The translations under genes and the position numbers were made by a program. 64,000 nucleotides of DNA from an uncultured Bryobacteraceae bacterium (GTDB lineage Bacteria > Acidobacteriota > Terriglobia > Bryobacterales > Bryobacteraceae), in contig CALJAM010000022.1 in the NCBI GenBank assembly GCA_938027685.1, forward strand, positions 124,001 through 188,000, given 5' to 3'. The stretch's first letter is position 1. The number at the start of each line of letters is the position of its first letter. The notes under the pieces are model-generated. The model was not told where the DNA came from and did no database searches. It saw only the letters and a program-made list of their open reading frames with translations. Below are positions 22,271 through 30,631 of the stretch, one piece after another.

Positions 22271-23938
22271 ATGAGCACTACCTGTTTCGATGTGTCCTTG
22301 GACCAGCTAAGCTCCGGCGCGCACTCGCCGACTCATTTCAAGCGGCCCGTAGAGCGCCCCTTCACGCGAGCGGAGCGCTCCGGCACGACCATCCTTTTTG
22401 GCGGACTGACCTGGAAACACGAGCGACTCATCCAGGGTGTGCTGGAGGGCTTGGGTTACAGGGCTCAGCCGCTGCCTACGCCGGATCGACGCGCTTTCCA
22501 GACCGGCAAGGAGTACGGCAACAACGGGCAGTGCAACCCTACTTACTTCACCGTCGGTAACCTCGTCCGCTATCTGGAAAGTCTGCGTGCGCAGGGAGTG
22601 CCGCGCCAGGAAATTCTTGACCGCTACGTCTTTTTCACCGCCGGCGCCTGCGGGCCTTGCCGCTTCGGGATGTACGAGGCCGAATATAGGCTGGCCTTGC
22701 GTAACTCCGGATTTGACGGCTTCCGCGTTCTTTTGTTCCAGCAGACCGGCGGCCTGGATCAGGCTGGACCGGACGACGGCCTGGAGATGAACCTGGAGTT
22801 TTTCTTGGGCATCCTCAATGCGCTCACTTTCGCCGATGTGCTCAACGAGGCGGCCTACGCCATCCGACCTTATGAGGTCAATGCGGGCGAAACCGACGCC
22901 GCACTGCAAAACGCCATCGAGGATCTCTACCAGGCCTTGCGCACCCACCGCTGGCGCCGTGCGCCGCAGTGGGCGCCGCGGCGGCTGCATCCCTTCCTGG
23001 ATCGTACGCTGAAGTTCATCCAACAGACATTCCAACCGGCTCTCTTTCCGGCGCTCGAGCGAGCCGCCCGGCGCCTCCTGCAGATCCCCGTGGACCGCCT
23101 GCGCGTAAGGCCCGTGGTCAAAATCACGGGTGAGTTCTGGGCGCAAACCACCGAAGGCGATGGCAACTTCAACATGTTCCGCTTCCTCGAAGGCGAAAAC
23201 GCCCAGGTATTGGTCGAGCCGGTTTCTACCTGGATCACTTACCTCATCCATCAGGCAGTGCAGAAGAACCGGGACTGGAAGGGGCTGGAGGAAGGCGCCT
23301 TGTTGCCTCCCTGGTGGCGGGGGCTCGCACGCCTTCGCATCGAGCGTAATTACCTACGCAAGCAGCTTCGCCTCAAACTGGCCGAGGCCCTCTTCCGCCG
23401 ACACTATCGCCGAGCTACGGCTGTGTTGAACGGACTGGCTCACCCCCTAGCCGATCAGTACGAGCTTCAGCGCTTGGGGCATCCGTATTACAACTCGCGC
23501 GCCGGCGGCGGAGAAGGTCACCTGGAAGTGGCCAAGAACATTTACTACTCCAACCGCGACCTCTGCCACATGGTGCTCTCGCTCAAGCCTTTCGGCTGCA
23601 TGCCCTCCACACAGTCCGACGGAGCCCAGGCTGCCGTGATCTCGCGCTATCCCGACATGATCTATCTGCCGATCGAGACCTCCGGGGAGGGCGAGGTCAA
23701 CGCCCACAGCCGCGTGCAAATGGCGCTGGGCGAAGCTCGCACTAAGGCGCGCCGTGAATTCGAAGAGGCGCTGCGCCGAACCGGGCTGACCCTGGAGGAT
23801 TGTCGCGCCTGGGTCGCCCGACGGCCCGAAGCGCAGCGCGCAGGTTATCGGGTTCCCAAACAGCGCGGCGTGGTGGGCGTGGCCGCCAATTTTGTGTTGC
23901 ACATCGCAGACTGCATGCGCCGGGAGGCCGGGCGATGA
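22271..23938 (+). CDS. 2-hydroxyacyl-CoA dehydratase-like (HgdB/PlsA-type) component
   Basis: 555 residues. FGGLTWKHERLIQGVLEGLGY (first 20 or so residues from about 43), GKEYGNNGQCNPTYF (near 82-96) and TAGACGPCRFGMYE (near 124) are the cysteine-rich blocks of the dehydratase/BcrBC-type module that binds [4Fe-4S] clusters, as found at the C terminus of large CoA-activase proteins such as clostridial PlsA. A second conserved block is LSLKPFGCMPSTQSDGAQ (near 437). It overlaps the activase gene by ATGA (23935-23938). With the activase it would form an ATP-driven low-potential reductase. In PlsA/GeR proteins this chemistry turns lipid esters into ether or vinyl-ether lipids; that role here is inference. 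Confidence 0.75.
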   Translation: MSTTCFDVSLDQLSSGAHSPTHFKRPVERPFTRAERSGTTILFGGLTWKHERLIQGVLEGLGYRAQPLPTPDRRAFQTGKEYGNNGQCNPTYFTVGNLVRYLESLRAQGVPRQEILDRYVFFTAGACGPCRFGMYEAEYRLALRNSGFDGFRVLLFQQTGGLDQAGPDDGLEMNLEFFLGILNALTFADVLNEAAYAIRPYEVNAGETDAALQNAIEDLYQALRTHRWRRAPQWAPRRLHPFLDRTLKFIQQTFQPALFPALERAARRLLQIPVDRLRVRPVVKITGEFWAQTTEGDGNFNMFRFLEGENAQVLVEPVSTWITYLIHQAVQKNRDWKGLEEGALLPPWWRGLARLRIERNYLRKQLRLKLAEALFRRHYRRATAVLNGLAHPLADQYELQRLGHPYYNSRAGGGEGHLEVAKNIYYSNRDLCHMVLSLKPFGCMPSTQSDGAQAAVISRYPDMIYLPIETSGEGEVNAHSRVQMALGEARTKARREFEEALRRTGLTLEDCRAWVARRPEAQRAGYRVPKQRGVVGVAANFVLHIADCMRREAGR

Positions 23939-29575: not shown

Positions 29576-30631
29576 ATGCCCCAGCGCCCTTGTACCTCCT
29601 CTGTTTCCCCGCTGCGACGGCGATGGATCGGGTGGTTGCGCCTGGCTCGAGAGCTGCGCATGATCGCGCGCGGCCTGCTCGATACGCGCCACCCGATCCT
29701 CGCCCACCTCATCGTTACCCGACGTTGCAATCTCTCGTGCGCCTACTGCAACGAATACGATCGCGTGTCGGCCCCCGTCCCGCTCGCGCTTCTTCTGGAA
29801 CGGGTCGACCGGCTGGCCGCCTTGGGCACGCAGGTGATTACGCTCAGCGGAGGCGAGCCGCTGCTCCACCCCGAATTGGAGCGGGTCGTGGCGCGCATCC
29901 GCCGTCACGGACTGCTGGCGGGCATGATCACCAACGGCTACCTGCTCACCGCCGCGCGCATCGCTGAGCTGAACCGCGCAGGCCTCGACCACATGCAGGT
30001 CAGCATCGATAACTTGGAGCCCGATCCCGCGTCCAGGAAAAGCCTGCGCGTGCTAGATCCCAAGCTGCGGCTGCTTTCCCGACTCGCCGTGTTTCACGTC
30101 AACATCAACGCGGTCTTGGGCGGTGGCGTGCGCCGCCCCGAGGATGCCCTCGACATCGCTCGACGCGCCGTCGAGCTCGGGTTCAGCTTCACGGTGGGCA
30201 TCATCCACGGCCCCGACGGGCGCCTGCTGCCCCTCAGCCCCCGCGAGCGCGAGGTCTACGATCAGTTGAGCAACATGGGCCGCGTCAGCTACTCGCGGTT
30301 CCATCATTTCCGTCGCAATCTGGTCGAGGGTCGCGAAAACCGGTGGCGCTGCCGGGCGGGCGCGCGCTACCTCTACGTGTGCGAAGAGGGACTGGTGCAC
30401 TACTGCTCGCAACGGCGCGGCCGCCCGGGCAAACCGCTGGCCGAGTACTCCGGAGAAGACCTCAGGCGCGAATTCTACCTGGAGAAGCCGTGCGCGCCCC
30501 ACTGCACTTTGGCCTGCGTGCACCAGGTCTCGTTGATCGACGCATGGCGTGCGCCGCAGCACGGCGAGGGCGGCTTCGGGCGTCCGGATCTGGTGACGCT
30601 TCCATCGCTGGGCCCGGGCGGGCACGCCTGA
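29576..30631 (+). CDS. Radical SAM protein with SPASM-like C-terminal cysteines
   Basis: 351 residues. The SAM cluster is C51-x3-C55-x2-C58 (CNLSCAYC), followed by ITLSGGEPLLHPE and MITNGYLLT. The C-terminal part has CRAG, VCEEG, YCSQ and CAPHCTLAC, which look like auxiliary cluster ligands. The start is uncertain: the ATG at 29576 lacks a Shine-Dalgarno, and an ATG at 29660 after GAGAG is possible. It lies 37 bp after the Tes-like gene in the same direction. A modification of the same lipid (for example ring formation or methylation) is conceivable, but nothing in the sequence fixes the substrate. Confidence 0.7.
   Translation: MPQRPCTSSVSPLRRRWIGWLRLARELRMIARGLLDTRHPILAHLIVTRRCNLSCAYCNEYDRVSAPVPLALLLERVDRLAALGTQVITLSGGEPLLHPELERVVARIRRHGLLAGMITNGYLLTAARIAELNRAGLDHMQVSIDNLEPDPASRKSLRVLDPKLRLLSRLAVFHVNINAVLGGGVRRPEDALDIARRAVELGFSFTVGIIHGPDGRLLPLSPREREVYDQLSNMGRVSYSRFHHFRRNLVEGRENRWRCRAGARYLYVCEEGLVHYCSQRRGRPGKPLAEYSGEDLRREFYLEKPCAPHCTLACVHQVSLIDAWRAPQHGEGGFGRPDLVTLPSLGPGGHA

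What the first reader, a model, noticed from the sequence alone, without database searches (positions are those of the whole stretch)
22271..30631. Candidate operon for ether-linked / membrane-spanning lipids (iso-diabolic acid or branched tetraether type)
Seen: a dehydratase-type protein, a tandem-ATPase activase with DUF2229, and a radical SAM protein with the Tes block order (SLCPKC, CNMMCDPC, QFSGGEPT, YLQFDG, QPVSFTGR) lie in one direction with ATGA overlap or short gaps, followed by a second radical SAM gene. Known: archaeal Tes (MJ0619) and bacterial Mss join lipid tails by radical chemistry; PlsA/GeR-type activase-dehydratases make ether or vinyl-ether lipids; Acidobacteriota of the Solibacter group make iso-diabolic acid and branched GDGTs. 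Inference: this cluster makes and joins such lipids in one transcript. The physical linkage of the ester-reducing and tail-joining steps is the point of interest.
Basis: partly seen in the sequence, partly recalled or inferred. Interest (0 to 1): 0.88.

Follow-up and report, generated by a model that had tools for sequence, protein, structure and literature searches.

The report
Acidobacterial ether and membrane-spanning lipid operon
An acidobacterium keeps, in one operon, enzymes that probably turn fatty-acid esters into ethers and an archaeal-like enzyme that probably welds fatty tails together, which may help explain how bacteria make the branched membrane lipids that geologists use as thermometers.

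Summary
Four same-strand genes sit at 22271-30631: a BCR/HAD-fold protein (PlsR-like, "DH"), a tandem-BcrAD + DUF2229 activase (PlsA/Ger-like, "ACT"), a 670-aa Tes-related radical SAM protein ("TESL") and a small SPASM-type radical SAM protein ("RS4").

TESL is not Tes proper. It scores 317 bits against Tes's 450-bit cut-off, and a 588-bit Tes lies elsewhere in the genome. It forms its own clade and lacks the N-terminal auxiliary [4Fe-4S] ligands, but keeps every ligand of the catalytic clusters. It is near-universal in this class (361 of 379 genomes), usually alone. DH-ACT is a conserved pair (89 of 90 loci); DH occurs in 124 of 379. A small SPASM-type radical SAM gene accompanies it in 30 of 90. 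TESL lies beside DH-ACT in the window genus and three other lineages.

Best reading: TESL joins iso-C15 tails (iso-diabolic acid), DH-ACT reduces esters to ethers; together they make ether-linked membrane-spanning lipids. PlsAR plus Tes homologues were already proposed for Solibacter at genome level (PMC10087280). Apparently new: the linkage, the variant clade and the radical SAM partner. No lipid was measured, and Mss could not be compared.

The parts
22271..23938 (+). DH: PlsR-like protein of predicted benzoyl-CoA reductase / 2-hydroxyacyl-CoA dehydratase (BCR/HAD) fold, 555 aa
   Evidence: ORF; no Pfam/NCBIfam/PDB sequence hit; AlphaFold2 pLDDT 85.3; Foldseek best 6eno, a double-cubane-cluster protein, E 4.5e-4; VIA-align Z 9.5 to the DCCP complex and 2-hydroxyisocaproyl-CoA dehydratase; Cys 88, 130, 443 invariant in the 22 aligned rows
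23935..27477 (+). ACT: PlsA/Ger-like activase with two BcrAD_BadFG ATPase domains and DUF2229, 1180 aa; ATGA overlap with DH
   Evidence: next to DH on the same strand in 89 of 90 loci
27527..29539 (+). TESL: Tes-related radical SAM protein, 670 aa, candidate lipid tail-joining enzyme
   Evidence: AlphaFold2 mean pLDDT 81.3, under 50 in the radical SAM loop 172-189; Foldseek 7tol TM (target) 0.82, 7tom E 9.1e-30; cluster ligands; tree
29576..30631 (+). RS4: small radical SAM protein with Cys-rich (SPASM/twitch-like) C-terminus, 351 aa (or 323 aa from 29660)
   Evidence: RS4 or its sister RS5 within 6 kb of DH in 30 of 90 DH loci; RS4 beside TESL also in L103, L106, L138, L170, L171, L187

Best explanation
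The four genes form an operon for ether-linked, membrane-spanning phospholipids. DH and ACT together are a split PlsA/PlsR/Ger-type enzyme: the two ATPase domains of ACT use ATP to push low-potential electrons into the [4Fe-4S] reductase domains (DUF2229 in ACT, and DH), which reduce the ester carbonyl of a glycerophospholipid to an alkyl (or vinyl) ether. TESL does Tes-type chemistry: SAM cleavage at the CX3CX2C cluster removes a hydrogen from the end of one iso-C15 tail, the carbon is parked on a sulfur of the C-terminal auxiliary cluster, and a second hydrogen abstraction on another tail lets the two sp3 carbons join, giving the iso-diabolic (C30 dimethyl) core. Together they yield mixed ether/ester or tetraether lipids of brGDGT type. 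RS4 is a third lipid-modifying or maturation step of unknown chemistry. Shown here: gene content, predicted fold, conserved ligands, recurrent linkage and distribution. Inferred: every substrate and product, and the order of the two main steps.
For: (1) TESL's predicted fold matches archaeal GDGT-MAS/Tes (7tol TM 0.82 on the target, 28% identity). All four ligands of [Fe4S4]C (C338, M439, C455, C470 in the enzyme's numbering), the three radical SAM cysteines and the aligned rubredoxin-site C33 and H36 are invariant in the 24 TESL rows I chose for diversity, as are 10 of 13 SAM/5'-dA contact positions looked at (ligands and contacts from passages of PMC9433317). (2) Tail-joining role by substitution: in 379 class genomes at least 90% complete, 361 have TESL (fragments counted; most called by E-value alone), 9 have only canonical Tes and 9 neither (my reading). 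(3) ACT has two PF01869 domains plus DUF2229; PMC13274423 (section read) says homologues with two PF01869 domains were validated as alkyl-ether-forming Ger. (4) DH-ACT adjacency holds in 89 of 90 loci. (5) Koribacter versatilis (G501, identified by recalled size 5,650,368) is reported to make iso-diabolic tetraesters (PMC13274423 introduction); it has TESL and Tes but no DH at E <= 1e-30 and no tandem activase. Acidobacterium capsulatum (G539; 4,127,356 bp checked in PMC4712552) likewise has TESL but no DH and no tandem activase. (6) Linkage: TESL lies within 6 kb of DH in the window genus (window, L103), G048 (L106), G401 (L321) and a Blastocatellia MAG (L179); RS4 and RS5 bridge TESL and DH-ACT in further lineages.
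Against: No lipid or activity data for this organism. TESL lacks the N-terminal auxiliary cluster ligands that Tes has and misses the Tes cut-off. Three SAM/5'-dA contact positions are not invariant in TESL (N108 is Asp in 23 of 24, R210 varies, T238 is Cys once). The genome already holds a canonical Tes and a second PlsA/PlsR-like pair, so this operon may not be the main route. TESL is nearly always unlinked to DH-ACT: 5 of 90 DH loci, of which one is the window and three were fetched for TESL, leaving 1 of the 86 picked without regard to TESL. At class level DH does not enrich for TESL (115 of 124 DH-positive against 361 of 379 overall); three DH-positive genomes (G059, G574, G646) have neither TESL nor Tes, nor has a single-contig genome, G070. 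S. usitatus makes brGDGTs without detectable iso-diabolic acid (PMC10087280). DH has no sequence-level family match.
Confidence: 0.6

Rival explanations
1. TESL is the acidobacterial iso-diabolic acid synthase, but DH-ACT is a vinyl-ether (plasmalogen) synthase rather than a maker of saturated alkyl ethers, so the operon's product is a mixed vinyl-ether/ester membrane-spanning lipid like those of Bacillota.
For: C. perfringens PlsA/PlsR is likewise a two-gene operon of activation and reduction domains (PMC12838417 passages). PMC13274423 says Ger and PlsA cannot in general be told apart by primary sequence and reports vinyl-ether membrane-spanning lipids in Bacillota.
Against: ACT has two PF01869 domains, the architecture that PMC13274423 associates with Ger and alkyl ethers; S. 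usitatus is reported to make iso-C15 mono- and diethers (PMC10087280).
Confidence: 0.2
2. DH-ACT is an ordinary activase/dehydratase or reductase acting on CoA thioesters (2-hydroxyacyl-CoA or aromatic CoA), and its place beside TESL is incidental.
For: The nearest fold and sequence relatives with solved structures are CoA-thioester enzymes, double-cubane proteins and their activators.
Against: Tandem ATPase plus DUF2229 is the PlsA/Ger layout. TESL-DH-ACT linkage is seen in four lineages, against a crude 0.24% expected per genome for 6 kb either side in 5 Mb; but counted without regard to the partner it is 1 of 86 DH loci and 1 of 80 named TESL loci, so this argument is modest. DH-ACT also travels with RS4/RS5 (30 of 90), which sit beside TESL elsewhere.
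Confidence: 0.15
3. TESL is a radical SAM enzyme of other function (for example pterin or cofactor modification, as the Pfam name HMPTM zinc ribbon suggests), and the genome's canonical Tes is the only tail-joining enzyme.
For: PF23545 Zn_ribbon_HMPTM hit; below the Tes cut-off; own clade on a long stem (3.12 changes per column); N-terminal auxiliary cluster ligands lost.
Against: Canonical Tes carries the same zinc ribbon; the fold, [Fe4S4]C ligands including the odd Met ligand, and most SAM contacts are those of Tes; canonical Tes is present in only 23 of 61 family genomes while TESL is in 52. Iso-diabolic acid is reported as common in subdivision 1 and 3 cultures (PMC13274423 introduction) and in Chloracidobacterium (PMC12816986 passages); TESL is in A. 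capsulatum (subdivision 1 is recalled) and in a MAG titled Chloracidobacterium sp. (L171).
Confidence: 0.12

Closest known systems
Archaeal tetraether synthase Tes / GDGT-MAS (MJ0619; PDB 7tol, 7tom)
   Same: Fold; radical SAM CX3CX2C; rubredoxin-type site; all four [Fe4S4]C ligands including the labile Met; QPVSFTGR SAM loop.
   Different: No CX3CX2C + His for [Fe4S4]N (0 of 24 TESL rows); extra CXC before the first [Fe4S4]C cysteine (C414, C416); N-terminal helix and C-terminal extension; separate clade; 317 against 450 bits.
Acidobacterial canonical Tes homologues (NF045702; own genome G000:C15; L288 of G501)
   Same: Co-resident paralogue, same superfamily; adjacent to TESL in G057 (L111) and about 11 kb from it in G501.
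   Different: These two meet the Tes cut-off (588 and 586 bits), and 12 of 12 such rows keep the N-terminal auxiliary cluster ligands. In 61 family genomes they co-occur with a second DH-like gene (26-31% identity to DH): 22 of the 24 genomes having either.
PlsA-PlsR plasmalogen synthase of Clostridium perfringens (literature only)
   Same: Two-gene unit; two activation and two reduction domains (PMC12838417 passages) matched by ACT (2x PF01869 + DUF2229) and DH (BCR/HAD fold).
   Different: Reductase gene comes first; DH has no Pfam match; product unknown.
Ger, glycerol ester reductase of Thermotoga and Desulfatibacillum (literature only)
   Same: Two PF01869 activation domains; proposed partner of a tail-joining enzyme in brGDGT synthesis (PMC13274423).
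   Different: Ger of D. alkenivorans has a calculated size of 159 kDa (PMC11150832 passages), i.e. one long polypeptide; here the reductase part is a separate gene. No Ger sequence was aligned.
Mss, membrane-spanning lipid synthase (literature only)
   Same: Same proposed step and, per PMC13274423, the same catalytic architecture as Tes.
   Different: Cannot be stated: I reached no Mss sequence, so TESL may turn out to be the acidobacterial Mss.

Membership tests
Tes (tetraether lipid synthase) | NCBIfam NF045702 equivalog cut-off 450 bits | tested here: not met
   317 bits; canonical Tes in the same genome scores 588
Tes (tetraether lipid synthase) | GDGT-MAS fold | tested here: met
   Foldseek 7tom E 9.1e-30, 7tol TM (target) 0.82 on a model of mean pLDDT 81.3
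Tes (tetraether lipid synthase) | Radical SAM CX3CX2C and C-terminal [Fe4S4]C ligands C338, M439, C455, C470 | tested here: met
   invariant in 24 of 24 TESL and 12 of 12 acidobacterial Tes rows. M439 is named in PMC9433317; that C338, C455 and C470 are the cysteine ligands is my reading of the alignment
Tes (tetraether lipid synthase) | N-terminal auxiliary [Fe4S4]N ligands C73, C77, C80 and His | tested here: not met
   0 of 24 TESL rows; second and third positions are invariant His and Ser. Which His is meant in the paper (H83 here) is my reading
Tes (tetraether lipid synthase) | Rubredoxin-type site CX2C ... CX2H | tested here: met
   C65, C68, C111, H114 in 24 of 24 TESL rows; MJ C9/C12 lie outside the aligned MJ stretch
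Tes (tetraether lipid synthase) | Groups with Tes in phylogeny | tested here: not met
   24 TESL rows form one side of a 100/100 branch apart from 12 acidobacterial Tes and MJ0619 (midpoint root only; the program warned of long branches meeting and of odd composition of the MJ row)
Tes (tetraether lipid synthase) | Joins lipid tails | not testable with these tools
   needs enzyme assay
Mss (membrane-spanning lipid synthase) | Sequence homology to validated Mss | not tested
PlsA/Ger activase | Two PF01869 domains plus DUF2229 | tested here: met
PlsA/Ger activase | Sequence similarity or motifs of validated PlsA or Ger | not tested
   no validated sequence reached; NCBIfam listed no model named PlsA or Ger for ACT
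PlsR / BCR-HAD reductase | BCR/HAD fold in DH | tested here: met
   Foldseek 6eno E 4.5e-4; VIA-align Z 9.5, 271-283 residues aligned at rmsd 5.0. Modest: an unrelated single-domain row reaches Z 8.4
PlsR / BCR-HAD reductase | Curated family match for DH | tested here: not met
   no Pfam match at E <= 10 and no NCBIfam match at E <= 0.001
PlsAR two-gene operon | Activase and reductase genes adjacent | tested here: met
   89 of 90 loci, same strand within 3.5 kb; order reversed relative to plsA-plsR

The most novel reading that the evidence does not exclude
TESL is a separate, bacterial branch of the tail-joining enzymes that works with one auxiliary cluster fewer than Tes and is the long-sought iso-diabolic acid synthase of the Acidobacteria. 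DH-ACT plus a dedicated small SPASM-type radical SAM protein (RS4 or RS5) form a three-part ester-to-ether machine, in which the radical SAM partner is a new component (maturation or a further carbon modification of the lipid), so the window operon is a compact, complete brGDGT-type pathway.
Probability: 0.3. Interest if true: 0.82.

Novelty: new variant of a known kind. Interest (0 to 1): 0.62.

Why it matters
brGDGTs are widely used palaeothermometers, but the genes behind them in their best-known producers, the Acidobacteria, are unproven: PMC11868695 calls the acidobacterial pathway still unclear (passages), and PMC10087280 describes the iso-diabolic acid step as proposed for a still unknown enzyme. 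This window gives a compact gene set to express as one unit, a near-universal candidate for the coupling step, a discrete candidate for the ether step whose presence differs between close relatives, and a third gene that none of the papers I saw in searches appeared to discuss. The lost auxiliary cluster would also tell enzymologists which cofactor of Tes may be dispensable.

Tried and rejected
Rejected: (a) that gene 3 is Tes itself (cut-off, clade and [Fe4S4]N not met). (b) That the window holds the genome's only such genes: a canonical Tes is at G000:C15, a second tandem activase plus dehydratase at G000:C8, and a further DH-like stretch at G000:C22:74237-74956. (c) That the linkage is general: TESL neighbourhoods are mostly not conserved (36 TESL loci, the commonest neighbour families in 7), and only 1 of 80 named TESL loci has DH-ACT (78 of the 80 had TESL called; these loci overlap in part with the 36). 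(d) A CsgG-type gene downstream (30756-31721) as an operon member: in G010 a 1132-aa gene lies between.

Led nowhere: promoter/terminator scan at chance level; plasmid search for TESL relatives gave 36 records, none at 60% identity or more, annotated mostly as radical SAM or NirJ proteins in the 25 rows listed; finding Solibacter usitatus failed: no single-contig genome near 10 Mb was among the rows I saw (120 of 170 family genomes, and the family rows; 50 rows were not shown); the 2022 Mss/Ger paper is not held; the genome-size search confirmed only A. capsulatum, so Koribacter, Granulicella mallensis, Terriglobus saanensis and Luteitalea pratensis rest on recalled sizes, and the Chloracidobacterium-like genomes G156, G183, G225 on two contigs and 3.7 Mb.

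Statistics not corrected for kinship: Tes against DH2 (a second DH-like gene, 26-31% identity) in 61 family genomes, Fisher p 2e-14; whether DH2 lies beside an activase was seen only in G000 and G558. DH against Tes and DH against DH2 each gave p 0.003. TESL against DH in 297 phylum genomes: 24 of 27 DH-positive and 119 of 270 DH-negative have TESL, p 7e-6. Sets were read by me. TESL was called in the phylum at best E <= 1e-190; in the class, rows weaker than about 1e-150 were checked, except G051 (fragment seen), while the rest, G500 and G643 among them, were taken as TESL from the E-value, since only the best places are listed. The 90 DH loci were not drawn at random: 24 by rank, 60 chosen down the lists, five fetched for other reasons (L103, L106, L179, L260, L262) and the window. 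In one search the window row was taken with alignment gaps in it; one search realigned it without gaps, but the tree was not rebuilt. That tree carries warnings of long branches meeting (TrsS-like with TESL).
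Full report
What is there. The window is G000:C22:124001-188000 of a 3.93-Mb, 45-contig assembly. Its family looks like Bryobacteraceae: the family genome G029 has a contig of 324,910 bases, the length of a record titled Bryobacteraceae bacterium. Four + strand genes run from 22271 to 30631: DH (555 aa), ACT (1180 aa, ATGA overlap), TESL (670 aa, 49 bases later, AGGAGG upstream) and RS4 (351 aa, 36 bases later).

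DH and ACT. ACT carries two BcrAD_BadFG ATPase domains and DUF2229. DH has no Pfam match even at E 10 and no PDB sequence match. Its AlphaFold model (pLDDT 85.3) finds a double-cubane-cluster protein first (6eno, E 4.5e-4), and VIA-align ranks double-cubane proteins, 2-hydroxyisocaproyl-CoA dehydratase and methylbenzoyl-CoA reductase highest (Z 8.4-9.5; an unrelated row also reaches 8.4). So DH is probably a BCR/HAD reductase subunit. Literature describes PlsA/PlsR as two activation and two reduction domains (PMC12838417 passages) and Ger as a two-PF01869 homologue making alkyl ethers (PMC13274423 section); DH+ACT match that layout with the reductase gene first. DH and ACT are neighbours on one strand in 89 of 90 loci; in the exception (L344) DH lies 149 bases from the contig's start, on the side where ACT would be.

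TESL. It hits archaeal GDGT-MAS (E 3e-62), but scores 317 bits against the Tes cut-off of 450. The predicted structure matches 7tol with TM 0.82 on the target. I mapped ligands named in PMC9433317 (passages) on an alignment of 24 TESL, 12 acidobacterial Tes, 5 TrsS-like rows and MJ0619. The split is clear: radical SAM cysteines, the aligned rubredoxin-site C33/H36, and the [Fe4S4]C ligands including the labile Met are invariant in TESL; the [Fe4S4]N cysteines and histidine are lost in all 24. Of 13 SAM/5'-dA contact positions, 10 are invariant in TESL. Two extra invariant cysteines (C414, C416) precede the first [Fe4S4]C cysteine. TESL is one side of a 100/100 branch with a long stem; the tree program warned of long branches. 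[quoted passage not shown] I therefore infer that TESL can do the same coupling with one cluster fewer.

Distribution. In the family sample (61 genomes), TESL is in 52, canonical Tes in 23 and DH in 32, fragments counted. In the class sample (379 genomes at least 90% complete), 361 have TESL, 9 only Tes and 9 neither; DH is in 124 (my reading). In the phylum sample (297), TESL is in 143 and DH in 27; 24 of the 27 have TESL. DH does not enrich for TESL in the class (115 of 124), where TESL is nearly universal; 121 of the 124 have TESL or Tes. Canonical Tes and a second DH-like gene co-occur in 22 of the 24 family genomes that have either, which suggests two parallel sets; the window genome has both.

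Named and sized genomes. Of 24 genomes searched for PF01869, four (G422, G473, G474, G594) encode a tandem-domain activase, and these are the four found DH-positive. The other 20 have single-domain ORFs of up to 526 aa or none; they include G501, G539, G538, G491, Acidipila rosea (L207), Acidicapsa dinghuensis (L224) and two Granulicella (L243, L245); the last four genomes were not searched for DH. G539 is A. capsulatum by size (4,127,356; PMC4712552 passage). G501 (5,650,368) fits Koribacter versatilis by recalled size; it has TESL and Tes about 11 kb apart. Koribacter is reported to make iso-diabolic tetraesters (PMC13274423 introduction); the text read does not say whether ethers were absent. 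That fits TESL without DH-ACT.

Linkage. TESL usually stands alone. It lies within 6 kb of DH in the window, G010, G048, G401 and a Blastocatellia MAG (L179): 5 of 90 DH loci, or 1 of the 86 picked without regard to TESL, and 1 of 80 named TESL loci. The window, G010 and G401 share the order DH-ACT-TESL (in G401 only the start of TESL was in the stretch fetched); G048 has DH-ACT and RS4 on one strand, divergent from TESL; L179 has TESL-RS5-DH-ACT. A second thread ties the parts together. RS4, or a sister family RS5 (21-26% identity to RS4 over 263-353 residues; 54-63% among full-length RS5), is within 6 kb of DH in 30 of 90 loci, RS4 in 3 and RS5 in 27: upstream, between or downstream of DH and ACT. 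The same small proteins sit beside TESL in L103, L106, L138, L170, L171, L187 (RS4) and in G029 (L105 = L169) and L179 (RS5). Both end in a Cys-rich stretch resembling SPASM/twitch domains (read from sequence); no NCBIfam cut-off was met in the rows shown.

Against prior work. PMC8941075 (passages) proposed bacterial Tes homologues for brGDGTs and noted 42% and 40% homologues in Koribacter and Solibacter and a 32% one in Edaphobacter aggregans; the last may be TESL, but I could not test that. PMC10087280 (section 18 read) proposed PlsAR homologues plus one or both Tes homologues in S. usitatus. Searches of the open library listed no paper that I could recognise as describing this operon, the TESL clade or an RS4/RS5 partner (searches listed 20 of 29 and 15 of 20 papers). 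The 2022 Mss/Ger paper is not held, so it may already list TESL as an acidobacterial Mss.

Verdict. A real operon, most likely for ether-linked membrane-spanning lipids, made of a variant tail-joining enzyme and a split ester-reducing enzyme, with an unstudied third partner. The chemistry is inferred, not shown.

Noticed in passing
G000:C15:26379-27848 (L001, L015) and G000:C8:130546-134531 (L016): The same genome has a canonical Tes (588 bits) and a second tandem activase plus dehydratase pair in plsA-plsR order; in 61 family genomes Tes and a second DH-like gene co-occur in 22 of the 24 genomes having either.
   Followed up: partly
L319 (G558) 2342-12609: The DH-ACT pair lies head to head with an ACT2-DH2 pair: two different PlsA/PlsR-like sets side by side.
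   Followed up: no
G020:C18:35521-37430 and G034:C36:44231-46151: TESL is split into two overlapping frames at about residues 175-186, just at the radical SAM CX3CX2C motif, in two different genera; assembly error, pseudogene or frameshift not resolved.
   Followed up: no
L111 (G057) 8682-12586; G501:C1:980576-995137: TESL and canonical Tes are adjacent (G057) or about 11 kb apart (G501), which suggests paired function or an old duplication.
   Followed up: partly
G070:C1:517021-518637 (L056, L085): A 2.4-Mb single-contig acidobacterium has DH-ACT but no TESL or Tes match, so ether formation may occur without tail joining.
   Followed up: no
window 33342-36302 (-): A BNR/sialidase-like domain fused to an S9-peptidase/abhydrolase-like domain and further C-terminal sequence, about 986 aa.
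   Followed up: no
window 18783-21434 (-): Hsp70-like protein with DUF3731 C-terminal domain, upstream and on the opposite strand, kept at the same place in G010 (L103).
   Followed up: no
window 57559-58051 (-): ARAGORN calls a tmRNA whose span overlaps called genes on both strands; possibly a false call.
   Followed up: no
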